DNA from: Bryum argenteum
Taxonomy: Eukaryota; Streptophyta; Bryopsida; Bryales; Bryaceae
Reading direction: 5' to 3'
Assembly: GCA_037043015.1 (NCBI GenBank)
Contig: CM073323.1
Coordinates: 5,890,001-5,954,000, forward strand
Length of the DNA stretch: 64,000 bases
A model generated the notes under the pieces. It saw only the letters and a program-made list of their open reading frames with translations, searched no databases and was not told where the DNA came from. Made by a program: the position numbers and the translations under genes. Positions 38,433 to 59,577 of this stretch are shown here, piece after piece. The stretch's first letter is position 1. Every line of letters starts with the position of its first letter.

Positions 38433-38534
38433 CTCCCTCTGTCCCATTCTTATTGTCCAGTAGGTTCTTTCAAATGTACCTCTCAAGGTAGATTTGAGAG
38501 AACCTATTGGACAATAAGAATGGGACGGAGAGAG
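38433..38534. mobile_element. Stowaway-like MITE, 102 bp
   Basis: The ends CTCCCTCTGTCCCATTCTTA and its near complement TAAGAATGGGACGGAGAGAG are flanked by TA on both sides (38431-38432, 38535-38536). The arms extend through TTGTCCA(G)TAGGTTCT, making almost the whole element a hairpin. Confidence 0.88.
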
Positions 38535-38640
38535 TAACATGTATTGAAAAGTCTTTGGAGTCCTGTGCAGTCAGGTACCAAAAGTGTTGATTTGTCTCTC
38601 ATCTCTCAACACTATAATAATTTGTTTTTGAAATTTCCAT

Positions 38641-38908
38641 TTAACCCCTGACTCTCTTTGTTGCAAAACGGTCTTAGTCACAAAATTTGACCTTCTTTTA
38701 GATTAAGCTCAAAAAATCTCAATTTAAGCATTATCAAAAATATTCAACCGTAAGATCTTAAAGCTCACTTGACATTCTTCTCACATACCAAATTTGAACC
38801 ATTCATTTTTCCTCATTTGAGAGTTTATAATGGTCAAAGTTGGCTGAGTTTTTCTCCTATGGGAACCTCCAAAACCCATTTTGGGTTTTAAGGAGAGTTA
38901 GGGGTTAA
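38641..38908. mobile_element. TTAA-ended short inverted-repeat element, 268 bp
   Basis: It begins TTAACCCCTGACTC and ends with the near complement GAGTTAGGGGTTAA. The body is clearly homologous, in opposite orientation, to 40480-40738, including the core complementary to TTTGACCATTATAA and GTATGTGAGAAGAATGTCAA. Confidence 0.7.
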
Positions 38909-40479
38909 GGAGTGCATTGAACTGAAGGTAAATAATTTTCTAGTTGGCAATTTTTATTGCGATAGGTCTATTGCTAACACTTTCACTTTTAAGTGAATAT
39001 GATATTTATTTATTTTTAGATTTTTTTAGTGATAATACATCATCTTTTCTCAATCTATGAGGCACCAAGATTGTTCTGAATCACATGACTTACAGTAAGT
39101 CTACGACAAGATTGTACGATTGAGATCTAATAAACTTCCATTTAAGACATTTTTTCAAAACAATTCATTTACACACCTTCACATAACATGATGCGAATCA
39201 CAAAATTAGAAACTAAATATTTAGAAATGTGATGAGATATTGGAATATCTTTTGGTAACATCAAACTTATTGTTTTTAACTGAACAATATTGAAATGCAA
39301 AGTATTGAATAGTATAAACTATTTGTTGACCCCAGCCTGAATGGCCCTTGTGTTTTTGGGAGCTTGAAACCTCAAAACGTGCAATTTTTGACCTCTCTGC
39401 ACGTGAACAGAACTGGATTTACTTTTTCTAGACTTCCAACTCTAAGATCTTCTACTTGAGCCTCTTTCAGTTCCCTTTCCAAAAAGAGACTGTTAAATGT
39501 TTATCATTTGCAACATTGTAATATTTAAAATTTCTTCAAAAGGTTTTTTTGGGAATGACTCAAAACGCCTTGACTTCATGATGCAAAGGAAGGATTGAAG
39601 ATTATTACCCCAAACATTAAGGTGACATTTTTTTCCATCCAGGTACAATCATGCATAAGTTTAGAAACTCATTCCACTATTTTGACCTTCATTCAAATTT
39701 TTCTTCAAAGGAAGGCCAGAAACAACAATACATTAAAACATGCATCAGACACAAAAGACATTTTTGGGCTGGGGAAATGACATTTATAAACTCTATATTA
39801 TTTGTTAAACTCAACATGATTAAAACCTCTGGAATTTCCCATACCATCCTCAATCATTTCTAGTGGAATAGTCCAAATTCTTTCCATTTGCCTCTATAAC
39901 AAACCAGGCAGTTACTGATGAAAACACCTGAATATTAAAGCATTGACCATTAGGTCAGGTTCACAACCAAACACTCAGGTGGTTCAGCAAGGGAAGAATA
40001 ATACATTAGACTCAAGAGGAGAAAGTGAAGCTTCAAATGTCAACCCACTCAAAAGGCGTATAAGTGATAATGTTGTGAGCAGGCTCCCATTAATACTTGC
40101 CCATGGATACTCGCGAGTTTCCAATCTCTGCCTGGGCCCCGACTATGTTCATGAACAGCACGCAAGCAAGCGCATGTGCATAAGTGCATTTAATTCGTTG
40201 AGCAGTCCATCCTCATCAAAGGAAAATAGAAATCCAATATCAAGATTGATGCAATGTTTGTCACTAATTGCCGTAGACCCGCTTTCCATCTACAACCACG
40301 CGCCATAGAAGTCTCACAGACGTAACACATGATCATTCCTTTCGGTACCCCCACATACAACATCAAATCCTTTTTTCAAACTCGACGCGCATGCACACAA
40401 GCCAAACAACTCGAGTCTCAAGTTTGCAGCGAGAAAAATTACCTCATGGCAACTACAACCTTGTGCAAATTTAACCCCT

Positions 40480-40738
40480 AACTCCCCTTAAAACCCGAAA
40501 CAGGTTTTGGAGGTTCTCGCAGTAGAAAAAATATCATCCAACTTTGACCATTATAATCTCACAAATGAGGAAGAATGAACGGTTCAAATTTGGTATGTGA
40601 GAAGAATGTCAAGTGAAATTTGAGATCTTACGATTGATTCTTTTAAATAATGCTTAGATTGAAATTTTTGGAGCTTATTCTAAAGGAAGGTCAAATTTTG
40701 TGATTTAGACAAGAAAATTTAAGGGTTAACCACTTAAC
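40480..40738. mobile_element. TTAA-ended element, second full copy
   Basis: It begins TTAACCCCTAACTCCCCTTA and ends AATTTAAGGGTTAA, with a more eroded right end than the copy at 38641. The internal core CTTTGACCATTATAATCTCA and AACGGTTCAAATTTGGTA is shared with copies near 31630 and 38641. Confidence 0.65.
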
Positions 40739-41742: not shown

Positions 41743-44126
41743 ATGCTCAACCCGGTTGTGGTTGGACTGAGAAACTGTGTTTCTTGGTGTGATCGAGGCG
41801 GAATGGAAGGGCCTGCTCGATCTCGAGGAGAGAATACCAAAGAGGTGCCGGAAGTGGACTATTTACAGAGGATAATGAGCTCGTTGACAGATTCATCAAC
41901 AGCGCCAGCGGAGTCGACTGATCGAGATTCAGGAGTGGGTTCCAGCTATGAGTCATATGGTCGCATTCCTGATATGAGCCCCGGGTTAAACCCTTGGGGA
42001 TTTTTAGCTCCACCGCCGGAGCTAGCGGAGACCTCCGAGCCCAGTTGGAGCCCGATCCAACGTGAGATTATGGCCGACTTTCCATGGCTGAATGAAGAGC
42101 TCGTGGTTTCCAAGGAGGAGTCTGATGCTTGCACACCCGTGCCCACCGATCAAGTCGCGTGGGCACAGTCCATGCTTGAGCTGCACGCATTCGAGCATTT
42201 CAGCAGACCCGAAGAACTGCAGTCGACTACACCAGTTGAATTGTTGAATCAGGAACGGTCAGCTTCCGTGACACCAGCTGAGACGCCGTTTAATTCGGAG
42301 TCTTTGTCATCGTCCCTCAGCAATGGCCAACCAGACCTCAAGGAGCCCCGAAGTGCCAAAGCCTGCAGTGAGTCATGCTCTGAAGCAGCCGGCACGTCTG
42401 TAGCTCAAAGAGGAAAGCGAAAGAGGTCAGCTGAGCCTGAGGATGGAGATGCACCCAGCGACGACCAGGAAACGTCTAAGAAGCCAATGTATGTTAAACT
42501 TCAGCACTAGTTTTACTGCACTTCGTGCGTGTGATCATCACTAGTTTTTCTACAAGTCACGTTGTGTATCATTCCTTGTGTGATTGTGTGTCCCCTTTTC
42601 TGATTAGATTTTGTAGGGCGCGTGTTGTGAGCAGAAATCGGCCACGGAAGAAAGGAGGAGTGAAGAGGGTGCGGGAGCCTCGCTATGCTATCAAGACCAG
42701 GACTGACACGGAAGTCATGGACGATGGCTACAAGTGGCGCAAATATGGACAGAAGGCCGTCAAAAACAGCCCCCACCCCAGGTACTGCTCAAAAACAGCT
42801 CCCACCCCCCAGGAACTGCTGCTGTATATGCAGCGAATATTCACGAGTCCACCATTCTTTCGCATTGCAGCTCGTAGTGTGAAGATCGTTATCGCTCCAC
42901 ACAGATTTGCTCTTGATAGTTTCAGTCAACATGCATATACACAAGCCAGACTTCTGCATGTAAGTTGCTTAAGTTGATGTAACAAAGACAGAAGAGTGAA
43001 CAAAGACAGAAAGAGTGAACCACGTTTCGATCTTTTGAGCGGTGCAGATTGCTTGATTGTCTGAAAAGGTAGTGTACCCCGTCTGTACGTTAAACGCCAG
43101 GTTCCAGATCTAAGCATGCAGTATTAACGGCAGAGGACCTTTCACGACAGGTCATGGTGCCAGCACACCTTCAAGTGTGCCGTGCATTAAGTATGTCAAG
43201 CTGGACATTTTTTCTCTTTGAACGGCAAGTATGAATCTGGACAGAATACCAGAATCTATTGTAAACATGCCAATTACTACCTTGGTTACACGAGCGAGTA
43301 CGGCACTAATCTTTTGCACCTCTTTGAAGAAAGAATGTAGGCTAGCGCCAAATGGCTCGACCGTGTATTCAATTACTCCCGAAAAGCGTCCTTACCAGAT
43401 CCAACCGTGTACAATCAAGTCGGTATCAGATGGTTCAAGCTAATTCGTGGACGGTCGAGTATATTCGAATCAAATCTAAGTCGTTGGTGTTCTGACAAAG
43501 ATGTACGGTTGTGCAGAAACTACTACCGGTGCACGTCGCCAAATTGCCCAGTTCGCAAACGTGTGGAGCGCTGCTTCGATGATCCGGGACTCGTGGTGAC
43601 CACCTACGAAGGCACCCACACGCATCAGTCTCCGAGTTTCCTGCTAGGACCTCCCCGATATCCCGGCGGATTGCACGCACTGCTGGCGACTCTCAGTCAC
43701 CAGTACAACCTCGCGGGGAACGCACCCTTGCCCCCGTTTTTAACGCCTTCGTCGCCGCTGTGGTTGTCCCAGCTGCAGCCGCCGCCGCCACCCTTGCAAG
43801 AGAATTTGAATCTGGTGCGGGCACACGAGCAGCTGCTCAGGTTGCAACAGCAGCAGGACGCTGCCTGGGCTTCATCGACTCAGTATCGACCGAGCTTCTC
43901 GAGCGCAAGTTCCTTGTCGGATTTAGGCCATGACACCAGAATGAGCCACTACGACTTGCTGGCTAACGTCTCGACTAGCCAAATGCATCCCGTGGAGTAC
44001 TCTTCCTTAGGACCATTCACCTCTTCAATACGGCCGACGGACCATTCCAATACTGCAGCTTCCAGTGACAGTGGCTTGCTGGAAGATATGTTTAGAAATA
44101 CGAATCCTTCTTGTACTAGACCTTGA
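41743..44126 (+). CDS. WRKY transcription factor, group IIc
   Basis: Exons are 41743-42488, 42617-42781 and 43517-44126, giving 506 residues (a start at 41803 would remove 20). The single WRKY domain has WRKYGQK at 289-295 and a zinc finger Cys309-x4-Cys314-x23-His338-x-His340, the C2H2 spacing of group II. The second intron interrupts the domain after HPR, at the Arg position conserved in group IIc and group I C-terminal domains. A basic stretch ([19 protein letters not shown]) before the domain and KRKR near 226-230 are likely nuclear signals. The N-terminal half is Ser/Glu/Pro-rich with [13 protein letters not shown]. The C-terminal tail is Gln/Pro/Ser-rich. WRKY proteins bind W-boxes (TTGAC) and act in stress and developmental regulation. 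Its 3' half is duplicated at 49.5 kb. Confidence 0.95.
42758..42820 (+). repeat. Tandem duplication across the WRKY exon 2 donor
   Basis: CAAAAACAGCCCCCACCCCA plus GGTACTGCT is repeated at once as CAAAAACAGCTCCCACCCCC plus CAGGAACTGCT. In the second unit the donor GT has become GA, so only the first can be used. The first donor gives the conserved HPR/NYYRC junction. Confidence 0.8.
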
Positions 44127-46937
44127 ACAAATTGTTTCATCATTGTAATATAATTCTTCTTCTCAATTCCCCGAGTTGTAAATCGGTTTTCAGTCTGGTT
44201 CGACATTCTAGTGACTATATTTCATGATTTGAATACCTGTAAGTTTATTGCATGCTTTGGAAACCTGTAAGTATATTGCATGGTATACCTGTATTCTAAA
44301 GGTGCAGACTTTCGAGTCCAGGCTACAGTGGACACGAGTGACAGCACTGCCCATATTCTTGGACGGCAACTACTGCGTTGCCTAGTTGACAAATATGCAC
44401 ACACTGCACATCAGGAATGAAACAATCCGTGAGTGAACTGATCTGCCACCACCTACTAAACCTGTGACCATGAAGATGAAACGGTTGCCTATCCGATCAG
44501 GTGCAGCACGCATGACAGTGGACTACATTGGTCAACTCCCACATTCCTGGTGGCTCTTTTCAGATGTGGCGGGGTCGACCAATTGCAGTAATCAATCGGT
44601 GCGATTGGCGTGATGCATAGCAATACCCATGGGATACGAGAAGGGGCAACTCGGTGGTCACCAGAGCCATTTTGATTCGATTCGGTTCGTAGAGAAAGTT
44701 GTAGTTTGTAGGGATCGGACCAGTTTGCGGACCCACTACCTTTGCACAATTACTACTTCCTTGAATGCACAGGCTGTGGAATTCCACATGCTTTACGTGC
44801 GGACTGGTTAGGTGCACTTGAATCCGACGTCGGTCGTTTTCACTTTTCACTACTGCTCACTTTTCAAACAAATCTCAAGCTGAATCTGAAGGCTGGAAGC
44901 CTGGAGCCTGATCTAGCTAGGAATGCGGTGCAGCAAGAGAGTGTCTTTTTACAAGAGTGTTCCATCGCTGGCTCTGGAAAGTGCAATCCAATTAGTGACA
45001 AAAATGAGTCTGGTTCGGACCAATTCCTGAGCCCTATTCCAGCCCCATGATCGATATGTATATTTATATAAAAGGAAAGGCGTCTTAGCTTTAGTCTAAC
45101 TGAGATTTTCCACTTTTGCAATTAATCCACGACCTGGCTTTGTACGTACGTGCAAAGCCCAACCCGGATTGAATCTCAGTCATCATCAGGCAGACGATTG
45201 CTGCGTGCCACTGGCTGATAGAACCCCAGCCCATACCGGTTTGCTTTTCGACTGAATGATGGATTACATTTAGCCAACGTGGACCGTCTTTAGTCTTTAC
45301 GGACTCCTGGACTATGATCGATTTCAGGACAGGAAAGGCGAAAGTGGCTATCGCCATGTTGCAACCTGCGGGGAGGATTAGTGAGAAAATCTCACTGAGT
45401 GTAGTGGCAGACAAGCTGGTACGATTGTCTTGAAAAAACTTTGTAAGGACTAAGGAGAGGCGCACAAAATTTAGTCAGCTACGGACACTTGGTGAATTTG
45501 ACTTTCGATGATACTCATCGATCCTCCATGCAGGACTGCCAACCGACCTTCTCCAAGGATCCTTTCGTCGATCGACACACGCTCTCCATTCCATTCCCAG
45601 TCCCAGACATTTTCCATACAGTCTCATTCTCAGTTGTTGCTCACCATCATCCCACATTGGAATCGGCTGCTGAAAAGAAGGAAAGATGCTGAATTTCAGA
45701 AAAAGGAAATCAATCAAATCATTGATGGCAAGATAGATCAGTTTAATAATCGAGAAAAATATATCCACTTGCACACCATGTCAAATTGATGCTGCAATTC
45801 GATGGAAGTGAGGATACTCAAATCTTACGAATACCTTCATTTGTGAATATGTCTAAATTTTCCCAACTCAATTTTGTTAAACTGGTGAATGATGACTATC
45901 GACAATCATATAATTCAAGAATAAAGGGAATCGATGATGATAATAATATAGCTTACAGCAAGACAAATATAGTTGTAGAAAAGTGGAGGCAATATCATCT
46001 CAAATTGACACAATTAATACGGAGATTCTTCCTATGCAAAAGCTTCATTCTCCTGTTTTCAGACACTCGAAAGTCAGTAGAATATCCATGTCCACTTTAA
46101 CGGGGTGAAAAGGAGGCAAAGTGAGTAAGTTAGAGCGGAAGTAAGAAAACGACTTGAGCTGTTGATCAGTGGCATGCACCACCGACGAGAAATGGAAAGA
46201 GATAAAGAGCAGGGGGGGCATGAAGGCATGGAGGAGCTTGACTGGAGGGTGAGGCAGTGGCCTTGTTGCCGGCATCTCGTACTGCTTCCGTTCGTGGGCG
46301 TCAACGAATGCCATTGTTGCTGCAAATCATGCACCTGCATGGATGCACGCTAACTTCGATTTTTCAAACTCCCTCGATCCGTCCAGATTAGCAGTCAAGT
46401 GCACAATAAGTTCGGACATGGCATGTCAATCAACTCTTTGACATTTCCTTTGTCTTAATTTGTCCACTTCGATTACCGTTGGCTTCTCACTCTACTGCAT
46501 CGTGCTCGTATGCTTGCAATGCAAATTATACTTGGTCATCGTCAAGTGGCTCCCGAAATCAAATCCCACAAAACGGTCACTTGTACTGTTGATTGTTCAG
46601 CCGGACTTCCTTGATTTGTGAAAATAGCAATTTGTCGAAGTCAGACTAATTGTGCAGCCTCCACTGAAGCTTAAACTTACTACTGCCTAACACTACATTT
46701 ACCTTGATTTTTGTTAGATTGCTACTTTTTTGCAGATAATGGTGGTATAAAAGGGTGGATCATGGATTCATGGGATCTAGCAAACCATGAAACGGAATGT
46801 TGTTATTTTATTAGCTTTATGACATTTATCGAGAGGGAGTTGATCCTAAATAGAAAGTGATCAGTTGTTGATCAGATTTTGGATATTAACAGTTTCCTTA
46901 AATGATGATAATATGTTCCTAAAATTGACACTCGTGG
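43101..46937 (+). repeat. Segmental duplication, source copy A (about 3.8 kb)
   Basis: Homology to 49459-53257 starts at GTTCCAGATCTAAGCATGCA within WRKY intron 2 and ends near AAATTGACACTCGTGG. It covers WRKY exon 3 and about 2.8 kb of downstream DNA. Long frames in the downstream part (for example 45091-45465 minus) are not conserved in frame between the copies, so I see no second gene in it. Confidence 0.93.
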
Positions 46938-48199
46938 TATCCCTTTGATACTACATGGATGTTTTTTAGATGTAAATACATCATGTATGTATTATCTCAA
47001 GTTTACTTAAGTAGATATACTTGTCAAGAAGTCAGGATGACAACTTGTACATCAAAAATGGCCTTTGGACAAATTCTGGAGCATACAACAAAAGGACACA
47101 TCCTAACAAGTTAAAAGGATTTTAAAAGAACTGTTGAATTTTTTTGAAATGATTCTTCGAGGTGTGTAGATCACAAGTTAATACACACTATACAAGTAAT
47201 ACAACCTAAGAGGTTGAACCAATTGAGTGCAAGGGGTGTAGATTTGGACCCATTTTCCTTTGTAAATATTTTGATAGTCTTCACCTTGCAAAGCTATTAT
47301 TTGAGCCAAATCTTTTTAAAAAAATATATCCCTTTTGTACAAGAGTGTTGTTGATATGAGGCTAAATAACTTTGTAGTTAGAAAATTGTTTCATTGCAAA
47401 TCTCAAGGTTGTCATATCGGGCGTGTTGAGGAGGCGGGCAAATCGGGCGGACAAGTTGTCTCGGGCGGGTGGGCGGCATGCCTATCCGATTTGGATGGGA
47501 TTTTAAAAGTGCCATTAAGTCACAATATCATCTATAATCGCATATTAAAACATATACGTCCCTTGGTGTTTTTAACAAGAAGACACAATTTTCTTGAAAG
47601 TGTCATAAATGAAAATGAAGGTAAATTACTCACATCTTAATTATACAAACTTTTAGTAGACTTACTGTACATCATGTGAATAAGAATTACAGTCATGAAG
47701 CCTCATAGATTGCGAGATCATTACCAATTACTCTTCATAAAAAACTACAAAATTTCATCATTTTCACTTTGAAGTGGAAATGCTACCAAGAAACCAATCG
47801 CATTGAAAATTTCACAAACAAAAAGGAAAGTTGTTCACCGTCATTTCAATAACATCGTTGTACAATAAATATACATCAAACAAAAAAATTTGCTCGAATG
47901 ATAGCCTTGCAACGGTGAAAACTACCAAAACTTTTAAAATGAAAAAATAGTCCAAAAACCACACCCCTGGAAAATTCTTGCCTCACCTTCAAAACACCTT
48001 TGATTTGGTCAAATATTTCAACCACTAAAAACAAACTCTAGTTGGATTTTATTCCAAAATATGAAGTTGAAATCTAACGGTGGAAAAAGGAGATATAGCT
48101 CTTCAAAAATCATCCACTTTTTTCTTCATAGAAACATGATTGCAAATATAATAGTAAAAGTACGATGATGAGAATAAGTCCAAGCGAAAGTTTGTTACA
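46938..48199. other. AT-rich spacer
   Basis: No gene was recognised. It contains one GC-rich repeat (47405-47494), and pieces resembling family A and other dispersed repeats (for example around 47690-47780 and 48080-48130). Confidence 0.55.
47405..47494 (+). repeat. Short GC-rich repeat, copy 1
   Basis: CAAGGTTGTCATATCGGGCG, then GTTGAGGAGGCGGGCAAATC and GCGGACAAGTTGTCTCGGGC. It stands out sharply from AT-rich surroundings and is homologous to the pair at 53871-54102. Confidence 0.75.
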
Positions 48200-49020
48200 T
48201 TAACCCCTCCATAATTGGAATTTTTCAGGGGAGAAGTAGGATTGGATATAAGTGAGTGGAGATAAATAGGTAAATCCTTCAAAAATTTCCTGTGTTAAAA
48301 GAGCATGCATGCGGGTGTGTTGTCCATAGCAGCTAATGGGTCTACCCATGCAGTTTTGTTTAAGACAAATCTGTGCTGCATGAGAAAGTGAGCATTCAGT
48401 GCTCAGAGAAGTGATGATGCATGTGTCTAACTAATGAGCTTTTGGAGCATCTTTTCCGGGGCACAGTAATGCATTTTCAGTAGCACGATTCATAACAGTT
48501 TGTGCTAATATGACAAGGTAATGAACGTCGAAAATTGCTCTCACCTGTAAATGGAGTGAGGATGCTGGAACACCACCCATACCATGTCTGGAGAAATTTG
48601 ACTTCAGATTAGAAGAAACAAGCAAAGGTCTGAAGGCATGAATTTCCACCTTGTGTTTGATTATCTCATTTGCCATACTTGCTATCTGTTTTTTCTAAGT
48701 GGATACCACTCTCTTGATAAATATGATAACATCACTTTCATTTGAACTTTATTATGATAAGGATTCCATTGTATAGTATTGATATCAGTTATGGTTACCT
48801 TATTCTGACCATGATCAACTAATATCAATCAATGTAAATGCATAACTCATTCTAGGATAAGCATTCATTTTTAGGGCTGAGGAATTTGGAGCATTCCTGA
48901 ATTCATCTTCATGGTATGCTCTACTTATATGTTCAATTAGTATGTGGGTTACTAATTGAAACATGATATCTTTATGTGAGTTGAAGAAACTAAGGAGTTG
49001 TTTGATAGAATGAAGATACA
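48200..49020 (+). repeat. Left arm of 7.7-kb inverted-repeat structure
   Basis: It begins TTAACCCCTCCATAATTGGA and is the reverse complement of 54588-55917 over about 0.8 kb, apart from an insertion in the other arm. It ends where ATGAAGATACATAATCC meets a TTAA-family head. Similarity stops exactly at the outer TTAA. Confidence 0.88.
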
Positions 49021-49082
49021 TAATCCTAACCCCTAACTTCCCCTAACTTTCCTTAAGACCCAAAACGGGTTTTGGAGGTTCT
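49021..49082 (+). mobile_element. Head fragment of a TTAA-family element
   Basis: CCTAACCCCTAACTTCCCCT, then CAAAACGGGTTTTGGAGGTT, matches the start of the elements at 40480 and 38641 (complement). It is cut off directly at the SAM synthetase fragment. Confidence 0.65.
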
Positions 49083-49446
49083 TGTACTCCACGGTCACCT
49101 CAGAGGTCTTTCCATCGGGACGCAACCACGCACACGTACCGTTCTTGCGAACCTCGGTAAGCTTGGCGCCCAACTTGGTCGCCAACACGTGACTCAGGAG
49201 CATGAGCTCCTAAATCTGTCCGTGGTATATCCGAACATGTGTCCCTGGTCACCAGCGCCAATGTCCTCGGGAGCCTCGGTGAAGTGCCCGTGCACTCCCT
49301 GGGCAATGTCCGGGCTCTGAGCCTCCAAGTTCATCAACACCTTGCACTTGTCCGCATCAAGACCAACATCATCGGAGACGAAGCCAATCTCCATGCAGGT
49401 GTCGCCGACGATCTTCGCGTAGTCGACAACAGCCTTGGTGGTCATC
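49083..49446 (-). pseudogene. S-adenosylmethionine synthetase fragment
   Basis: It is homologous to 58868-59229 of the intact gene, same strand, covering about codons 57-177. Identity is high (for example [20 protein letters not shown] is unchanged). A one-base deletion after MFGYTTD shifts the frame and brings a stop, and a three-base gain lies near TVEYK. Both gene ends are missing, so it is not functional. Because the parental CDS lacks introns, DNA-level copying and retroposition cannot be told apart. Confidence 0.92.
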
Positions 49447-49458
49447 TTGCTTGACTAT

Positions 49459-52400
49459 GTTCCAGATCTAAGCATGCAGCATCAACAGCAGAGGACCTTT
49501 CACGACAGGTCATGGTGCCAGCACTGTGACGTGCATTAAGTATGCCAACCTGGACAACTACTCTCTTTAAACGGTAAGTATAAATGTGGACAGAACACCA
49601 GAATCTATTGTAAACATGCCAATTAGTACCTTGATTACGCACACGAACGGCACTAATCATTTGCACAACTTCGAAGAAAGAATGTAAGGTAATACCAAAA
49701 GACTCGACCGTGTATTCAGTTACTCCCCAAAACGGTACTTCCCATATCCAGCCGTGTGCAATGAAGTCGGCATCAGATGGTTCAAGCTAATTCGTGGACA
49801 GCCGAGTATATTCGAATCAAATCTAAGTCGTTGGTGTTCTGACAAAGATGTACGGTTGTGCAGAAACTACTACCGGTGCACGTCGCCAAATTGCCCAGTT
49901 CGCAAACTTGTAGAGCGCTGCTTCGATGATCCGGGGCTCGTGGTGACCACCTACGAAGGCACCCACACGCATCAGTCTCCGAGTTTCCTGCTAGGACCTC
50001 CCGGATACCCGGCGGATTGCACGCACTGCTGGCGACGCTCAGTCACCAGCACAACCTCGCTGGAACGCACCCTTGCCCCGTTCTTAACGCATCCGTCGCC
50101 GCTGTGGTTGTCCCAGCTGCCGCCGCCACCCTTGCAAGAGAATTTGAATCTGGTGCGGGCACACGAGCAGCTGCTCAGGTTGCAACAGCAGCAGGACGCT
50201 GCCTGGGCTTCATCGACTCAGTATCGACCCAGCTTCATTGGTGCAAGTTCCTTGTCGGATTTAGGCTATGACACCAGAATGAGCCACTACGACTTGCTGG
50301 CTAACGTCTCGACTAGCCAAATGCATGCCGTGTAGTACTCTTCCTTAGGACCATATATTCACCTCTTCAATACGGCCGACGGACCATACCAATACTGCAG
50401 CTTCCAGTGACAGTGGCTTGCTGGAAGATATGTTTAGAAATACGAATCTTGTACTAGATCTTGAACAAATTGTTTCATCATTGTAATGTAATTCTTCTTC
50501 TCAAATATGCCGAGTTGTGTGTCTGGTTCTACATTCTTTGAATACCTGTAAGTATGTTGCATGATTTTCAATCCCTGAGTGTAAGCTTATGGCATGGTTT
50601 AAAGACCTGTAAGTATATTGCATGGTATACCTGTATTCTAAAGGTGCAGACTTTCGAGTCCAGGCTACAGTGGACACGAGTGACAGCACTGCCCATATTC
50701 TTGGACGGCAACTACTGCGTTGCCTAGTTGACAAATATGCACACACTGCACATCAGGAATGAAACAATCCGTGAGTGAACTGATCTGCCACCACCTACTA
50801 AACCTGTGACCATGAAGATGAAACGGTTGCGATCCGATCAGGTGCAGCGTGCATGACAGTGGACTACATTGGTCAACTCCCACATTCCTGGTGGCTCTTT
50901 TCAGATGTGGCGGGGTCGACCAATTGCAGTAATCAATCGGTGCGATTGGCGTGATGCATAGCAATACCCATGGGATACGAGAAGGGGCAACTCGGTGGTC
51001 ACCAGAGCCATTTTGATTCGATTCGGTTCGTAGAGAAAGTTGTAGTTTGTAGGGACCGGACCAGTTTGCGGACCCACTACATTTGCACAATTACTACTTC
51101 CTTGAATGCACAGGCTGTGGAATTCCACATGCTTTACGTGTGGACTGGTTAGGTGCACTTGAATCCGACGTCGGTCGTTTTCACTTTTCACTACTGCTCA
51201 CTTTTCAAATAAATCTCAAGTTGAATCTGGAGCCTGATCTAGGAACGCGGTGCAGCTAGAGAGTGTCTTTTTACAAGAGAGTGTTCCGATCCATCGCTGG
51301 CTCTGGAAAGTGCAATCCAATTAGTGACAAAAATGAGTCTGGTTCGGACCAATTCCTGAGCCCTATTCCAGCCCCATGATCGATATGTATATTTATATAA
51401 AAGGAAAGGCGTCTTGGCTTTAGTCTAACTGAGATTTTCCACTTTTGCAATTAATCCACGAGCTGGCTTTGTACGTACGTACAAAGCCCAACCCGGATTG
51501 AATCTCAGTCATCATCAGGCAGACGATTGAGGCGTGCCACTGGCTGATAAAAACCCATCCCATACCGGTTTGCTTTTCGACTGATCGATGGATAACAATT
51601 CGCCAGCATGGACCGTCTTTACAGACTCCTGAACTATGATCGATTTCAGGACAGGAAAGGCGAAAGTTGCTATCGCCATGTTGCAACCTGCGGGGAGGAT
51701 TAGTGAGAAAATCTCACTGACTGTAGTGGCAGACAAGCTGGTACGATTGTCTTGAAAAAACTTTGTAAGGACTAAGGAGAGGCGCACAAAATTTATTCAG
51801 CTACGGACACTTGGTGAATTTGACTTTCGATGATACTCATCGATCCTCTACGCACGACTGCCAACCGACCTTCTCTCCCACCTGGATCCATTCGTTTATC
51901 GACACACGCTCCCCATTTCATTCCCAGTCTCAGACATTTTCCATGTCTCATTCTCAGTTGTTGCTCACCACAATCCCTTGATATCGGCTGCTGAAAAGTA
52001 GGAAAGATGCTGAATTCCAGAAAAAAGGAAATCATTGATGGCAAGATAGATCAGTATAATTATCGAGATTTAGTAACAAGAAAAAAGTATCCACTTGCAC
52101 ACCATGTCAAATTGATGCTTCAATCTGATGGAAGTGAGGATACTCATAGCTTACGAACACCTTCATTTGTGAATATATCTAAATTCTTCCAACTCAATTT
52201 TGTTAAACTGGTGAATGATGACTATTGACTATCAAATAATTCTAGCTTACAGCAAGACAAATTTAGATGTAGAAAAGTGGAGGCAATATCATCTCAAACC
52301 ACTCAATGTGACACAATTAATACAGAGGTTCCTCCTATGCAAAAGCTTCATACTCCTGATTTCAGACAAGCAAACGTCAGTAGCATAGCCATTTTCACTT

Positions 52401-53257
52401 TAACGGTGGGGGTGAAAATGAAGCAAAGAGAGTAAGTTAGAGCGGAAGTAAGAAAACGACTTGAGCTGTTGATCAGTGGCATGCACCACCGACGAGATGA
52501 ATGGAATGAGAGAAAGCGCAGGGGGGCATGAAGCGCATGGAGGAGCTTGACTGGAGGGAGAGGCAGTGACCTTGTTGCCGGCATCTCGTACTGCTTCCGT
52601 TCGTGGGCGTCAACGAATGCCATTGTTGCTGCAAATCATGCACCTGCATGGATGCACGCTAACTTCGATTTTTCAAACTCCCTCGATCCGTCCAGATTAG
52701 CAGTCAAGTGCACAATAAGTTCGGACATGGCATGTCAATCAACTCTTTGACATTTCCTTTGTCTTAATTTGTCCACTTCGATTACCGTTGGCTTCTCACT
52801 CTACTGCATCGTGCTCGTATGCTTGCAATGCAAATCATACTTAGTCATTGTCAAGTGGCTACCGAAATCAAATCCCACAAAACGGTCACTTGTACTGTTG
52901 ATTGTTCAGCCAGACTACCTTGAGTTGTGAAAATTGAGATGAAACACAAGCAATTGGTCAAAGTCAGACTAATTGTGCAGCCTCCACCCTCGCTTAAACT
53001 CACTACTACCTTACTACCTAACACTACTTCTAACTTGATTTTTGTTAGATTGCTACTTTATTGCAGACAAGGATGGTGTAAGAGGGTGGACTGGGTGGAT
53101 GGGATCTAGCAAACCATCAAGCGGAATTATGTTATTTCGCTTTATCAGAAGGGAGTTGTTCCTAAAGAGAAAGTGATCAGTTGTTTTGAAACTGATTTTG
53201 GAGATTAACTGTTTCCTTAAATTATGAAAAATATGTTAAGAAATTGACGCTTGTGGA
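49459..53257 (+). repeat. Segmental duplication, copy B inside the inverted-repeat structure
   Basis: It is the same segment as 43101-46937, in the same orientation, with scattered substitutions and small indels. Its left end joins the SAM synthetase fragment through about 12 bases (TTGCTTGACTAT). It ends near AAATTGACGCTTGTGG. Confidence 0.93.
49864..50464 (+). pseudogene. 5'-truncated WRKY exon 3 copy
   Basis: It starts after the same TTGTGCAG acceptor as the intact gene and keeps [14 protein letters not shown] and the His-x-His half of the finger. The WRKYGQK exon and exon 1 are absent. After GPPGYP small indels shift the frame for about 40 codons before it returns at PLWLSQL. Codon GAG has become TAG at 50333-50335 (after MHAV), removing the last 30 or so residues. 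The open frame reaching upstream to 49754 is intron sequence. Confidence 0.92.
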
Positions 53258-53870
53258 GTAATAGATTAACATCACAAATTTTTGTCAATTAATTCACTGG
53301 TATATATATCTTAAATCAAGAGCAATGGCAAGCTTGGGGTATCTTAGAGAGGCCACTAAAAGTGTTTTTTTTTTCTTTCCCTTTTTTGTCTTTTCAAGAC
53401 TTTCGTGTAGGAAACACACTACTTTCAATTTATTTTCATGAAACCCAATTCTGGAGGAGCACGCGGATATAATTGGTGTAATTGAATCTTTGTAATTTAA
53501 TATTTATACTTTACACTAACTTTCTTGCATTTTTTATACTACATGATGTTTCTATGTCCGAATTTCTGTCTGCACAACAATCCTCTGTGATAGATCTCAC
53601 CTTAATGCATACATGGCATGAAGTGTTTTGAAGAGTTTGAAGAGTTTTGGTAAGTGGTATTTGATCATTACCAAGAGTTTATTATATTCATCTAACATAT
53701 CAAGAGGACAGGGAATGTACAGCATGAGAATGGGAGCGGAAAGCAAGGAAATGGGAGAATGGAGGACGTGGAACTAGTAGTCACAGATGGGAATTAGAAA
53801 CGGGAGTTGGAAAAGGGGGAATTGGTAATGGATAATAGAAGACCGGGAACTAGAAAATGGGGGACGGGAA

Positions 53871-54102
53871 CAAGGTTGTAATGTCCGGCGTGTTGAGGTG
53901 CTCGGGCGGGCAAACCGGACGGACGAGTTGTCTCATGGGGGCAAACCACGCGGACAAGTTGTCTCGGGCGAGCGGTCTGCCTGCCCCATTTGACTGTCTT
54001 TAAAGTTGTCATATTGGGCGTGTTGAGGTGATCGGGCGGGCAAACCGGGCCCGGACAAGTTGTCCCGGGCCGGCGGCCCGCCTGCCCAATTTGACAACCT
54101 TG
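53871..54102 (+). repeat. Two GC-rich repeat units in tandem
   Basis: Units 53871-54000 and 54003-54102 share GGCGTGTTGAGGTG, CGGGCGGGCAAACC and GACAAGTTGTC. The second ends TGACAACCTTG, the complement of the CAAGGTTGT start, so each unit has short inverted ends. Confidence 0.75.
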
Positions 54103-54368
54103 GACAGGGAACCAAGTATGGGGACAGGGGATCGAAGCGCGAGCACAGAGGACGAGGATCCCGTCATCAGGAAAAATGTACTATATTTTGGAATAAAAAC
54201 TCACTCTTCAAGAATACGTAATAGAGAGCACAAGTTCTTACTTGTTTCACAAAATTAGCTTGCGATGGTAAACAGACCCCATGTTTGAAAACTTTAAACA
54301 AAAGTTGCCTTCACTAAAAATCTAAAATGCATGTCATCAATAAATTGTTCACTATATGGATTTGCAAT

Positions 54369-54438
54369 TTTTACCGCACAAACTAGACTTGATTTGGGAC
54401 CCAACGCAAGCAATTTCAGTAATAACTTATGGCTCTTT
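54369..54438 (-). repeat. Dispersed repeat family A, inverted copy
   Basis: ACCGCACAAACTAGACTTGA, then TTTGGGACCCAACGCAAG and ATAACTTATGGCTCTT, is the complement of the copy at 5456. The right part is shortened. Confidence 0.65.
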
Positions 54439-54587
54439 AGTCTCTTCCTTTCATTCAAATGGTCGATTTTCAACCCTAGGACGGAACATTCAGGGGGTTA
54501 AAATCCTGATGCATTTATAAAATGGGTAATTGAGGATCTTTGAGATTACAGTGATCGAAGATCCTTATTCTACCTTATTTAATAGCG

Positions 54588-55917
54588 CGTATCTTCACTT
54601 TCTCAAACAACTGCTTTCTTCAACTCACATGTAGGGATATCATGCTTCAATCAATAACCCAAATACCAATTGTTGTTGAACATATAAGTGGAGCATACTC
54701 TAAACATAGATGCAGGAATGCTCTAAATTCCTCAGCCCTAATGAATGCTTATCCTAGAATGAGTTATGCATTTACATTCATTGATATTAATTGATAGTTA
54801 GAATAAGGTAACCATAACTGATGTCAATACTTTACGATGAAATCGTAATTAAAATAAAGTTCAAATGAAAGTGATGTTATCATATTTATCAAGAGAGTGT
54901 AATCCACTTAGAGAAAACAGATAGCAAGTATGACAAATGAGATAATTGAACACAAGATAGAAATTCATGCCTTCAGACCTTTGCTTAAGACAAATTTCTC
55001 CAGACATGGTATGGGAGGTGTTCCAGCATCCTCACTTCATTTACAGGTGAGGGCATCCTCCATGGACACGGAATACACTCCCTCTAAACCAAATTCTATC
55101 TTTTGACTGATTAAAAATTAGAAATTAAAATTATCATCATTAGAAGCGCATGTAAATAAACATGAGATATTTCTCAAGGAAAAAAAAAAAAAATTGTGAA
55201 ATTGGGACGTAGGTGAAATCCCTCATTGAAAACATCACATTTTCAAAATTTAGAGGGAGTGCACCAAATCTTGCTTAAAAATGGGAAGATCCTCACACGC
55301 TCCCTCTAAATTTTAGAAATATAGAGGGAATAAGGGGGGGTCACCTACTTTTTAAGCAAGATTTGGTGCACTCTCTCTAAATTTTGAAAATGTGGTATTT
55401 TCAATGAGGGATTTCACCTACGTCCCAATTTCACAAAAAAAAATCTTGAGAAATATCTCACATTTATTTACATGCGCTTCTAATGATGATAATTTTACTT
55501 TCTAATTTTTAATCAGTCAAAAGATAGAATTTGGTTCAGAGGGAGCTTATTCAGTGTCCATTGAGGATGCTCTAAGAGCAATTTTTGACGTTTCATTACC
55601 TCTGTCGTATTAGCACAAACTGCTATGAATTATGCTACTGAAAATGCATTACTGTGCCCCGGAAAAGATGCTCCAAAAGCTCATTAGTTTGACACATTCA
55701 TCATCACTTCTCTGAGCACTGAATGCTCACTTTTTCATGCAGCACAGATTTGTCTTAAACAAAACTGCATGGGTAGCCCCATTAGCTGCTATGGACAACA
55801 CACCAGCATGCATGCTCTTTTAACACAGGAAATTTTTGAAGGATTTACCTATTTATCTCCACTCACTTATATCCAATCCTACTTCTCCCCTGAAAATTCC
55901 AAACATGGAGGGGTTAA
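54588..55917 (-). repeat. Right arm of 7.7-kb inverted-repeat structure
   Basis: This is the reverse complement of 48200-49020 and ends AAACATGGAGGGGTTAA at 55917. It is about 805 bases after removing the MITE at 55051-55572 and its duplicated target. The next bases (TAAAAGGGTGCC) have no counterpart beside the left arm. Confidence 0.88.
55051..55572. mobile_element. Harbinger-like MITE with an empty site in the other arm
   Basis: The ends are GGGCATCCTCCATGGACAC and its complement ...GAGGATGCTC, followed inward by long arms that make most of the 522 bp a hairpin. The flanks are TGA (55048-55050) and TAA (55573-55575). The left arm of the large structure has the uninterrupted sequence GGTGAGAGCAA (complement near 48,537-48,547) at the same point, which defines the insertion. 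Confidence 0.88.
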
Positions 55918-58214
55918 TAAAAGGGTGCCCCTACATTCTACCCTCTATAAATGTTAACCCTCGGGAGTAAGCATTTCTTAATCCCTTGAGTATCCTGAGG
56001 ACCGTTTTGGGTCGCTTTTGCTCTCATCAGCTTCTCAGTTACTATATTTAGCTTGCATGAGTTTGAAACCTTCTGAAGGTTGTAGAGTTTTTCCCTACCT
56101 TTCCGAATAGCCATTTCGAGCCCTTAACCCCAAAACGACCACGGCCACCGATTCAGCTTGTACGGTCAAGGCCAAAAGATGTTTACAGTCAACTTCAAAT
56201 GTTATGATCTCACATCCAGTGATGATCCAACGGTTGAAAATTTTCACACTACTACCTATGGTAGTCTACTTCAAGATCCTACGGTTGAAGTTATCAAAAA
56301 TTTCCAAAAATATTGGACGTCCAATATGACATTAGTCAATATTCCATCAGTACATAGTGGTCAGTGTTGGGATTTCAAGCTCCCAAAACATCGTGGATCT
56401 TTAGGGGTTAAAGTCCTCATAGTTTAGGAGATATTCATGGTCAAAGCTTGAAAGTAGTATTTAAAATCTGCCCAAAACTGCCCAACTGTAGTATATGCTC
56501 ATTTATTCTCAAAATCTGCCAAAAAAACAATTAAATCGCATAAACTTTAAAAAATCACCAAAGATTGAGATATTACTTTTATTCAAATTTTGTTTTTTCT
56601 ACTTTTGGAGGAGGTTGTAAGGCATGATTATACTGTTTGGATTTTCATTCGAATAATTATTAGATGCCTTTATTATTGTCAAGGAATGGTCTTTGTATTT
56701 GAATTTTACCATACCTCTATGGGAATAATCAAGCATTTCTTTGGGTTTTATAAGTCGCATGAGGGTAATAATTACATAGATATATTCCTTACGAATCTAA
56801 GAACAAGAATTTGATGAGCCACTAATCTACTTTATTACCCAAAATGGTTTTTTTGGCCCTCAAAACTTTGCTCACCCTCTTTACGACAAGGAGAAATTTT
56901 TTTTTCTCAACTTTAAACATTATGATCTCACAAATGGTAAAGAATTTAAGTCTAAGATTTTATATACATATACACGTAGAAGTTAGGTACTAGATCCATG
57001 ATTACATATTTGAAAATACATTATATAATAAATCTTTCACCTTGCATTCAAACACGGCAATTTTGAAGGCAAAGCATGCAAATAGTGTCTTGAAACTTTA
57101 GCGATCAACACTTACAGGGTATTAACAATTTACAATAAAATAAAATAAAATAAAAATAAAAAATGAACAATTTTAAGAACATGATTTTAAAATATAATGT
57201 ATTTTAACGTGTATGTATTTAAAAGATTCAAACTCATGGAGTAAAATTCAACATTTTGTCATGGTACAAAGGTACAAATGTTAGCATACATTCATTCAGA
57301 TTGTGGACGTATAGTGATGCATATCATCCATTCAACATTTGTAAGGTCAAAAATACAAAGAGGGGGACAATCAGCACATTTACCATTTTTAGTGTGGGGA
57401 GTAGAAGACACCAAGCATTTGGAAAGAGCCAACACTGAAAAGTGTTCATTCAAGACTGTATTCTGTGTTGCAGAAGGTCTTTAAATTGCAAGGGTAAAAT
57501 CTAGATGAGGTTCCCGCTTTCCAAACAGAACCTCATTAAATGAAAAGACAAAACAACCTGGGCCTCCAGAGCATCCGAATAGAATATAGTGAGCAGTCAC
57601 CAAGTTTGACAAACTCGAGAAAACTAAGGATTCACTGTATCTGAAAAATCTCAGGCACCAGCTCTGTCTGGGTAGTTTCAGGAATTAGTGCTCGTGTCTC
57701 GAGGCACCAAAAGGACTTGTGATTATGGCTGACCAGAGCATAATTTACAGAACAGCATCCACAATAATTGATGCAAGGCTCCGCAGTATTCGAGGACATC
57801 TCCGCCTTTCTCCAAGAAAAGTCCGTGACATTCACAGAAGATATAAATTGAATTGCGGAATGCAAACGCCATCCTTCAGGACGACGCTTGCAAACGCCAC
57901 TGCCGACTTCCGCTTCGCAAAAAGCAGCAGTGGTCACTCGCAGAAATATGTAAAATTAAAAAAATAAGGCATCAAAATCCGGCCGGCTCAGTTCATAGGA
58001 AAGAAATTACAGCGACGTCCTACTGCCTGCAATCCTGCCTAAGATCACACAGCCAAAAAAATATTACTATGTAGTTGAAGGCCTCATTAACCAGGGGGGA
58101 GCTCATATCACCCCGTCCCCTTTCATTTTCGAGAGACCAGCATTAAATTGATGCAACTCTTCATCCGCAGGAAGAATGCGAGACGATTCGACCGCGAGTA
58201 TCTAAACAATGCGC
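55918..58214. other. AT-rich intergenic DNA
   Basis: No gene was recognised. It holds a TTAA-ended element (56124-56411) and an inverted relative of the 35.8-kb tandem repeat near 56440-56520. The last 100 bases or so are probably the 3' UTR of SAM synthetase. Confidence 0.55.
56124..56411. mobile_element. TTAA-ended element, 288 bp
   Basis: It starts TTAACCCCAAAACGACC and ends GATCTTTAGGGGTTAA. The interior contains TGTTATGATCTCACA and AAGATCCTACGGTTGAA, words also present in the elements at 31.6, 38.7 and 40.5 kb. Confidence 0.6.
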
Positions 58215-59396
58215 TTAGGCCTGGGCCTTCTCCCACTTCAGGGGCTTGACAATCTCCCAGGTGAAGTCGGGGTCGTTACGTCCGAAATGGCCGTATGCAG
58301 CAGTCTTCTGGAAACGCTTGTTACCTCCACGCTTCAGATCCAAGTTGATGCACATCATGCCGGGCCTGAAGTCGAAGTTCTCCTTCACGATCTTCAGAAT
58401 CTCCGAGTCGTGGATCTTTCCGGTCCCGTACGTGTCCACGAACACTGACAATGGCTCCGGCACTCCAATGGCGTATGATACCTGCACGATCGCCCGTCGA
58501 GCCATGCCGGCAGCCACAATGCTCTTCGCTGCCTGACGCACAATGTACGCCCCGCTCCTGTCCACCTTTGTGGGGTCCTTTCCGGAGAAAGCACCTCCTC
58601 CGTGAGCTCCCCATCCTCCGTAGGTATCGATGATGATCTTGCGACCCGTCAACCCAGCGTCACCGTGAGGTCCTCCGATCACAAACCGACCCGATGGGTT
58701 CAAGTGGAAGATCGTGTTCTCGTCCATGTACTTCGACGGGATCACGGGCTCAATCACGTGCTTCTTCAAATCAGCCGCGATCTGGTCGTTCGTCACGGTC
58801 TCATCGTGCTGGGTGGAGATCAGCACAGTGTGCACCCTCAGGGGCACCATGGCGCCACCGTCGTTTTTGTACTCCACGGTCACCTGGGTCTTTCCATCGG
58901 GGCGCAACCACGCACACGTACCGTTCTTGCGAACCTCGGTAAGCTTAGCGCCCAACTTGGTCGCCAACACGTGAGTCAAGGGCATGAGCTCCTCAGTCTC
59001 GTCCGTGGCGTATCCGAACATGTGTCCCTGGTCACCAGCGCCAATGTCCTCCGGGGCCTTGGTGAAGTTCCCGTGCACTCCCTGGGCAATGTCGGGGCTC
59101 TGAGCCTCCAAGTTCATCAACACCTTGCACTTGTCCGCATCGAGACCAACATCGTCGGAGATGAAGCCAATCTCCCTGCAGGTGTCGCGGACGATCTTCT
59201 CGTAGTCGACAACAGCCTTGGTGGTGATCTCACCGAACACCATCACCATGTTGGTCTTGGTGCACGTCTCGCACGCCACCTTGCTGTCGGGGTCCTGCTC
59301 GAGGCAGGCATCCAAAACGGCATCGGACACCTGATCGCACAGCTTGTCGGGGTGGCCCTCGTTCACAGACTCGGAGGTAAACAGAAATGTCTCCAT
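58215..59396 (-). CDS. SAMS: S-adenosylmethionine synthetase
   Basis: An uninterrupted 393-residue CDS starts [20 protein letters not shown]. It carries the family signatures [15 protein letters not shown] (about 118-132) and [17 protein letters not shown] (the P-loop-like signature 2), [18 protein letters not shown], and an intact C-terminus [16 protein letters not shown]. The enzyme makes S-adenosylmethionine from methionine and ATP in the cytosol as a homo-oligomer, supplying methylation, polyamines and lignin precursors. An in-frame extension 17 codons upstream is excluded because an acceptor (GTGTGCCAG) sits directly before the ATG. The high G+C at third positions contrasts with the AT-rich flanks and fits strong expression. 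It is the source of the broken fragment at 49,083-49,446. Confidence 0.98.
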
Positions 59397-59577
59397 CTGG
59401 CACACAATCGAAAAACCCGAATCAGCACACTCAGATACTCTGACCACAAACCGAAAAACCTAACCCCATCGTACTCGACCCTACTCACAGATCCACAAAT
59501 TCAGGACCAGCCGCACAGCTGCAAACCCAACTCAGAATCGCATGCTAAAGGAAAGGAAAGGTGGGTAAGAGCAGTAC
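59397..59577 (-). other. 5'-UTR intron of SAM synthetase
   Basis: Donor CTCAAG|GTACTG at 59577-59576 and acceptor GTGCCAG immediately upstream of the ATG. A leader intron just before the start codon is usual in plant SAM synthetase genes. Confidence 0.75.

What the first reader, a model, noticed from the sequence alone, without database searches (positions are those of the whole stretch)
48200..55917. 7.7-kb TTAA-bounded inverted-repeat structure carrying fragments of two nearby host genes
Seen: arms of about 0.8 kb in opposite orientation (48200-49020 and 54588-55917), whose similarity ends exactly at TTAACCCC and GGGGTTAA. Between them lie a broken SAM synthetase fragment and a 3.8-kb copy of the WRKY 3' region. 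Both parents are intact within 10 kb. A TTAA target and C-rich ends recall piggyBac-type elements, and gene fragments between inverted arms recall Pack-type transposons. Inference: a large non-autonomous element that took up neighbouring DNA, or a local rearrangement mediated by such repeats. No transposase was seen.
Basis: partly seen in the sequence, partly recalled or inferred. Interest (0 to 1): 0.78.

Follow-up and report, generated by a model that had tools for sequence, protein, structure and literature searches.

The report
Patched break inside a plant transposon
A small plant transposon was split in the middle and refilled with 5 to 6 kb of DNA, most of it traceable to neighbouring genes and flanks, which looks like messy copy-repair of a chromosome break rather than a mobile element bounded by the two inverted arms.

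Summary
The repeats are real, but the TTAA-bounded element is not. The window lies in a 258.8-Mb genome taken to be a plant's (WRKY gene). The left arm (48199-about 49029) is an inverted, truncated copy of the native right arm (about 54577-55917). The apparent terminus TTAACCCC lies inside a dispersed Mutator-type MITE: all 40 scored matches (of 157 candidates, the query's own locus included) cross the equivalent position, and 18 of 25 copies with both ends have 9-bp target duplications. The left arm, a 50-bp repeat scrap, a SAM-synthetase fragment and a 3.8-kb WRKY copy are contiguous. The three large pieces have similar divergence (K2P 0.073, 0.066, 0.073), so one event is likely. This block, plus up to 1 kb of unassigned sequence, interrupts a different MITE of about 970 bp, whose halves (about 47548-48198 and 54235-54500) rejoin with about 58-107 bp unaccounted for. 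Traceable donors lie 0.3-5.1 kb from the break. Best explanation: a break in that MITE, filled by copying neighbouring templates in turn, as in the gap-filling model of single-copy Pack-TIRs in animals.

The parts
47548..48198 (.). Left part of the interrupted host MITE (family F, about 970 bp when whole)
   Evidence: Aligned to F copies up to 48146 by BLAST and weakly on to about 48196; the joined-flank alignment begins at 47557. The 47548 start is set by eye from the TTA at 47545-47547.
48199..49029 (-). B': inverted, truncated copy of the right arm (left arm of the finding)
   Evidence: K2P 0.073 to B over 794 sites, measured on 48199-49019. End moved from 49019 to 49029 because the C5 relative shares TAATC.TAA.
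49030..49081 (.). D: short scrap of a dispersed repeat between B' and C'
   Evidence: 39 scored matches elsewhere in the genome (40 scored of 822 candidates, one being itself), many of them 98% over 41-43 bp.
49078..49447 (-). C': broken fragment of S-adenosylmethionine synthetase coding sequence, copied from 58863-59230
   Evidence: 92.7% to the window SAMS; 88.1%, 87.9% and 75.7% to the three other long SAMS matches; 30.6 bits, just under Pfam's cut-off of 33.1.
49448..49458 (.). Unassigned junction filler between C' and A'
49459..53256 (+). A': 3.8-kb copy of the WRKY exon with the 3' half of the domain, and downstream DNA
   Evidence: K2P 0.073 over 3723 sites; 44127-46937 matches only itself and A'.
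53257..54234 (.). Residual insert of unassigned origin, partly dispersed repeats; part of the patch or a later insertion
   Evidence: 53871-54103 and about 53575-53775 are dispersed repeats; 53257-53573 had no match elsewhere among the 40 of 430 candidates scored.
54235..54500 (.). Right part of the interrupted host MITE F, ending GGGGGTTA
   Evidence: Strong from 54245, weak from about 54235; end at 54500 set by eye.
54577..55917 (+). B: native donor of the left arm (right arm of the finding)
   Evidence: Inner part continues beyond the arm end in relatives on C5 and C2; outer end continues into a MITE.
55050..55573 (.). 524-bp palindromic (foldback) insert in B, absent from B'
55855..55960 (.). 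End of a decayed Mutator-type MITE that spans the supposed TTAA terminus
   Evidence: Its limits are approximate, and no second end was identified at this locus.
43101..46937 (+). A: donor of A' (WRKY exon and downstream DNA)
58863..59230 (-). C: donor of C', inside the intact SAMS ORF (58218-59459, minus strand)

Best explanation
A double-strand break in the interior of a roughly 970-bp MITE was repaired by copying nearby templates one after another. The left broken end annealed at ATTAAC to the neighbouring right-arm sequence and copied about 0.83 kb of it, giving the inverted arm B'. It then switched to a dispersed repeat (D), to the SAMS gene 4.6-5.0 kb to the right (C'), and to the WRKY 3' region 1.3-5.1 kb to the left (A'), before being joined to the other end. 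The product is a MITE with local gene fragments in its middle, a gap-filled single-copy Pack-TIR. Shown: copies, sources of A', B' and C', contiguity, similar ages and the split host MITE. Inferred: the break, the order of switches, the polymerase pathway (SDSA versus MMBIR) and the priming microhomologies.
For: (1) The flanks rejoin into one TE: 47557-48198 and 54235-54502 align in order over positions 15-986 of a full F copy. (2) B', D, C' and A' are contiguous, with 11 bp of filler only between C' and A'. (3) K2P A/A' 0.0734, B/B' 0.0731, C/C' 0.0657. (4) C' is closest to the window's SAMS gene among the four long SAMS matches in the genome, and 44127-46937 of A matches only itself and A', so the sources are local. 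(5) The supposed terminus is inside a dispersed MITE: 40 of 40 scored matches, of 157 candidates and counting the query's own locus, cross the equivalent position; the family has 9-bp target duplications in 18 of the 25 copies with both ends found, of 30 examined. (6) Short shared motifs can be read at J1 (ATTAAC), J2 (CTTAA-like) and J3 (GTT). (7) Cis bias, microhomology and internal breakpoints are three of the four observations given for gap-filled Pack-TIRs in PMC8277862 (passages read).
Against: 53257-54234 (978 bp) is unassigned, so the right edge of the patch is uncertain; resumption of the MITE directly after A' was not significant (621, 729 and 822 of 1000 shuffles reached the score for three copies). 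The left flank's last stretch (48131-48206, 8 bp of B' included) matches F only weakly (50, 1 and 0 of 1000 for the same copies). Differences between A and A' are strongly clustered (dispersion 5.65, 0 of 2000 permutations), which suggests later gene conversion or uneven constraint and weakens the equal-age argument. J4 has no microhomology. The microhomologies are short and were read by eye without a null. The fourth observation of the gap-filling model, an unfilled TE at the orthologous site, could not be examined.
Confidence: 0.78

Rival explanations
1. A large non-autonomous TTAA-specific (piggyBac-like) element with 0.8-kb terminal inverted repeats that captured host fragments.
For: TTAACCCC / GGGGTTAA at the outer edges of the similarity.
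Against: The TTAACCCC position is internal to a dispersed Mutator-type MITE whose sequence continues outward past 55918. The search with the 821-bp left arm found no other paired-arm locus among its 8 matches. The inner part of the right arm continues beyond the arm limit in C5 and C2 relatives. The split MITE puts the right arm outside the insert.
Confidence: 0.03
2. Several independent local events: a tandem duplication of A, a separate inverted duplication of B and a separate SAMS insertion.
For: Clustered A/A' differences and a decline of identity from the outer to the inner part of the arms; unassigned 53257-54234.
Against: Pieces abut within 0-11 bp, have similar K2P and together split one MITE.
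Confidence: 0.15
3. A rolling-circle (Helitron) or Pack-MULE capture that inserted into the MITE.
For: Gene fragments plus a Mutator-type terminus within B'.
Against: The Mutator terminus points inward, not outward; no second copy of the block was found (a 275-bp part of A also matches C4 and C' matches other SAMS genes); the traceable donors are within about 5.1 kb of the break; no terminal inverted repeat at 48199/53256. Helitron ends were looked for by eye only.
Confidence: 0.04

Closest known systems
Single-copy Pack-TIRs made by transposition-independent gap filling (PMC8277862, Nat Commun 2021; passages read)
   Same: TIR element with internal breakpoint, filler copied from the same chromosome nearby, short shared motifs at junctions, single copy.
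   Different: Plant rather than animal; at least three templates plus a repeat scrap, one inverted. [quoted passage not shown]
SDSA filler insertions and gap patching in plant genomes (barley, PMC3706897, passages read; Wicker et al. 2010 and Vaughn and Bennetzen 2014, seen only as references)
   Same: Break repaired with copied foreign sequence, no transposase signature.
   Different: Barley insertions/deletions averaged 492 bp, 54% were under 100 bp, and the range reached more than 7 kb; here the patch is 5-6 kb from several local templates.
piggyBac / Pack-MULE
   Same: TTAA motif; gene fragments between repeats.
   Different: TTAA is not a terminus; no outward TIRs at the block's edges; no other copy found.

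Membership tests
piggyBac-type element | TTAA target duplication directly outside both TIR ends | tested here: not met
   Right edge is internal to a longer dispersed repeat.
piggyBac-type element | Other copies, or an empty TTAA site | tested here: inconclusive
   The search of the own genome with the 821-bp left arm gave no second paired locus among 8 matches. No related strain was available for an empty site.
piggyBac-type element | Related transposase | not tested
   Eight ORFs scanned with Pfam gave only WRKY and SAMS families; no genome-wide transposase search.
Pack-TIR formed by gap filling | Non-TE sequence between two halves of one TIR element | tested here: met
   Split F element. 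That F is a TIR element rests on short inverted ends seen in one full copy.
Pack-TIR formed by gap filling | Filler from nearby on the same chromosome | tested here: met
   A, B and C donors within the window. D and 53257-54234 have no assigned donor.
Pack-TIR formed by gap filling | Microhomology at a breakpoint | tested here: inconclusive
   ATTAAC at J1 read by eye, no null computed.
Pack-TIR formed by gap filling | Unfilled TE at the orthologous site of an outgroup | not testable with these tools
   No relatives are held for this genome (output).
PIF/Harbinger-like MITE (host element F; class recalled) | Short TIRs and 3-bp TWA target duplication | tested here: inconclusive
   CCCCTAAACGTCC preceded by TAA in 6 of 7 distinct fetched F copies (L066/L073 and L067/L074 are each one locus; in L070 that end was not found). 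Only one copy was seen with both ends, flanked by ATAA on both sides; the far end of L073 lacks the motif. No transposase link tested.
Mutator-type MITE (at the right-arm edge; class recalled) | 9-bp target duplication and TIRs | tested here: met
   For the family: 18 of 25 copies in which both ends were found, of 30 examined. The window member is decayed, and of its close relatives L009 and L010 no pair of ends was found either.
Pack-MULE / Helitron | Defined outward-facing ends at the edges of the captured block | tested here: not met
   No TIR at 48199/53256; the Mutator end points inward. Helitron ends by eye only.

The most novel reading that the evidence does not exclude
A plant example of transposition-independent Pack-TIR birth: breaks inside abundant MITEs are filled by serial template switching among neighbouring genes. 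This leaves gene fragments between two MITE ends that a PIF/Harbinger-type transposase in trans could later move, so MITE-internal breaks would seed gene-fragment carriers.
Probability: 0.45. Interest if true: 0.5.

Novelty: new member of a known kind. Interest (0 to 1): 0.36.

Why it matters
It shows at one locus, with most donors, the host element and the joints readable, how a plant can build an apparent Pack-type transposon without transposition. The authors of the animal study say that whether their gap-filling or FoSTeST model applies to plant Pack-MULEs is worth exploring (passage read). It also shows how a TTAA-like boundary between inverted repeats can be an accident of a breakpoint inside another MITE.

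Tried and rejected
piggyBac reading: rejected because the boundary motif is internal to a MITE. Pack-MULE with the arms as TIRs: rejected because the Mutator terminus in B' points inward. A conserved RNA gene in the arms: Rfam at E up to 1 gave 8 hits in 38000-62000, all below the gathering scores, the strongest at the stem-loop 38430-38537, and one weak MIR6024 hit inside the 524-bp palindrome; L004-L008 gave 2 hits, both below the gathering scores. Protein coding in the arms: no Pfam hit for two arm ORFs. Exact right junction directly after A' at an ATTAAC repeat, a possible short target duplication: tested and not significant. I first read 53257-53870 as unique, which scored only 40 of 3122 candidates; one search showed that about 53575-53775 is a dispersed repeat, so that reading was dropped. 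Two cited papers are not held.

Full report
Setting. The window is G000:C3:5890001-5954000 of an unnamed 258.8-Mb genome in 25 contigs. It holds WRKY-domain ORFs near 41.7-44.1 kb and an intact SAM-synthetase ORF at 58218-59459 on the minus strand. From these it is taken to be a plant genome; the species was not determined.

Observation. Self-BLAST of the window gives four relations that matter here. A 43101-46937 is copied directly at A' 49459-53256. B 54589-55917 is copied inverted at B' 48199-49019. C 58863-59230 is copied directly at C' 49078-49447. A 42-bp stretch at 49040-49081 (D) resembles 38863-38904 and 40475-40517. The right arm contains an extra 524-bp palindrome at 55050-55573, absent from B'.

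The TTAA end is not a terminus. Aligning the right arm's edge with three relatives from chromosomes C10, C4 and C6 shows similarity continuing outward through TTAACCCC into GGGGCACCC and beyond; only the left arm stops there. Searching the genome with the C4 copy gave 157 candidates, of which 40 were scored, the query's own locus included. All 40 start at query position 19 or earlier and end at 108 or later, so all cross the equivalent of the TTAA (query positions 58-61). Most of these are a MITE of 248-270 bp with GCCGCTCACTAAATCCAATCC ends. Of 30 copies examined, both ends were found within range in 25, and 18 of those 25 have 9-bp flanks equal at 8 or 9 positions; in several of the other 7 the repeat is visible but shifted by one base. 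That is a Mutator-type target duplication (class recalled). The subfamily nearest the window is decayed: no pair of ends was found in L009 and L010. The MITE's outer end points into the arm, so about 60 bp of MITE plus about 770 bp of neighbouring DNA make up each arm.

The right arm is the native copy. Besides the outer edge, its inner part continues past the arm's inner limit in relatives on C5 (54432-54936, 76.5%) and C2 (54463-54741, 75%). Using the C5 relative as a guide, B' runs to about 49029. Over 357 sites shared with that relative, 24 differences fall on B', 16 on B and 3 are ambiguous.

The host element. The left flank (47597-48146) and the right flank (54245-54480) match, in order and orientation, the two parts of one abundant repeat (5490 first-look candidates in the genome, 40 scored). 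The one copy seen with both ends is about 970 bp with CCCCTAAACGTCC-like inverted ends flanked by ATAA; the near end is preceded by TAA in 6 of 7 distinct copies. Joining the flanks gives an alignment over element positions 15-986. Element position 611 is where the strong left match ends, about 660 where the weak one does, and about 718 where the right part resumes, so about 58-107 bp of the element are missing or unrecognisable. The inserted block therefore begins at 48199 and ends no later than about 54234, and the right arm lies outside it.

Sources. C' is 92.7% identical to the window's SAMS gene, 88.1% and 87.9% to two other SAMS copies about 220-240 kb away, and 75.7% to a fourth. A downstream of the exon (44127-46937) matches only itself and A'; within 43101-44126 a 275-bp piece also matches C4 at 87%. 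D is a scrap of a dispersed repeat with 39 other scored matches, many 98% over 41-43 bp, so its donor cannot be named. In present coordinates B lies 0.3-1.7 kb, C 4.6-5.0 kb and A 1.3-5.1 kb from the edges of the block.

One event. K2P distances are 0.0734 for A/A' (3723 sites), 0.0731 for B/B' (794 sites, palindrome left out) and 0.0657 for C/C' (367 sites). Of the 23 C/C' differences, 17 fall on C', 5 on C and 1 is ambiguous, as expected for a dead copy of a living gene. Against simplicity, A/A' differences are strongly clustered (index of dispersion 5.65, 0 of 2000 permutations as high; for B 1.92, 88 of 2000), so later gene conversion or uneven constraint has probably acted.

Junctions. 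J1, flank/B': ATTAAC (48199-48204) is shared with the donor. J2, B'/D: CTTAA-like in the C5 relative and in D's family. J3, D/C': GTT. J4, C'/A': 11 bp of unassigned filler, no microhomology. J5, A'/right side: ATTAAC also occurs 9-14 bp after A' (53265-53270), which would make a short duplication, but the test that the MITE resumes there was not significant, whereas 54150-54270 did match it (9, 0 and 4 of 1000 shuffles). The 978 bp from 53257 to 54234 is partly dispersed repeat (about 53575-53775 and 53871-54103) and may be part of the patch or a later insertion.

Mechanism. The best account is a break inside the MITE followed by serial copying from neighbouring templates. SDSA with template switching and replication-based MMBIR cannot be told apart here. 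In animals most single-copy Pack-TIRs are attributed to gap filling, on cis bias, microhomology, internal breakpoints and the unfilled TE in outgroups, the last of which could not be tested here. [quoted passage not shown] In barley, 38 insertions/deletions (12.7%) contained non-homologous stretches attributed to SDSA (PMC3706897, passages read). Paper searches, listings only. I make no claim that plant cases are absent from print.

Verdict. The TTAA-element reading is rejected, the local-rearrangement alternative is supported, and Pack-type architecture is present but with another element as host. An instructive single locus; a new member of a known kind.

Noticed in passing
55050-55573: A 524-bp palindrome (85% identical to its own reverse complement) inside the right arm with a weak, sub-threshold MIR6024-like Rfam hit; B' serves as its empty site.
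   Followed up: partly
38671-40710: Another long inverted repeat: 240-bp arms, 87% identical, about 1.6 kb apart; their inner ends resemble scrap D.
   Followed up: no
38430-38537: A 106-bp palindrome matching MIR1120, MIR6288 and MIR1862 models below their gathering scores, perhaps a MITE-derived hairpin.
   Followed up: no
43101-46937 versus 49459-53256: Differences between A and A' are strongly clustered, with 200 aligned sites without any substitution next to stretches with 10-26 per 100; possible gene conversion.
   Followed up: partly
58218-59459; C3:5706713-5707933; C3:5725171-5726394: Three close SAM-synthetase copies lie on C3 within about 240 kb (97% protein identity); the two outside the window show stops within the matched stretch.
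   Followed up: no
56410-57100: A very abundant dispersed repeat just right of the finding (4493 first-look candidates for the query 55918-57100, 40 scored).
   Followed up: no
43112-43386: Part of the presumed WRKY intron also occurs at C4:6976307-6976579 at 87%, perhaps a repeat.
   Followed up: no
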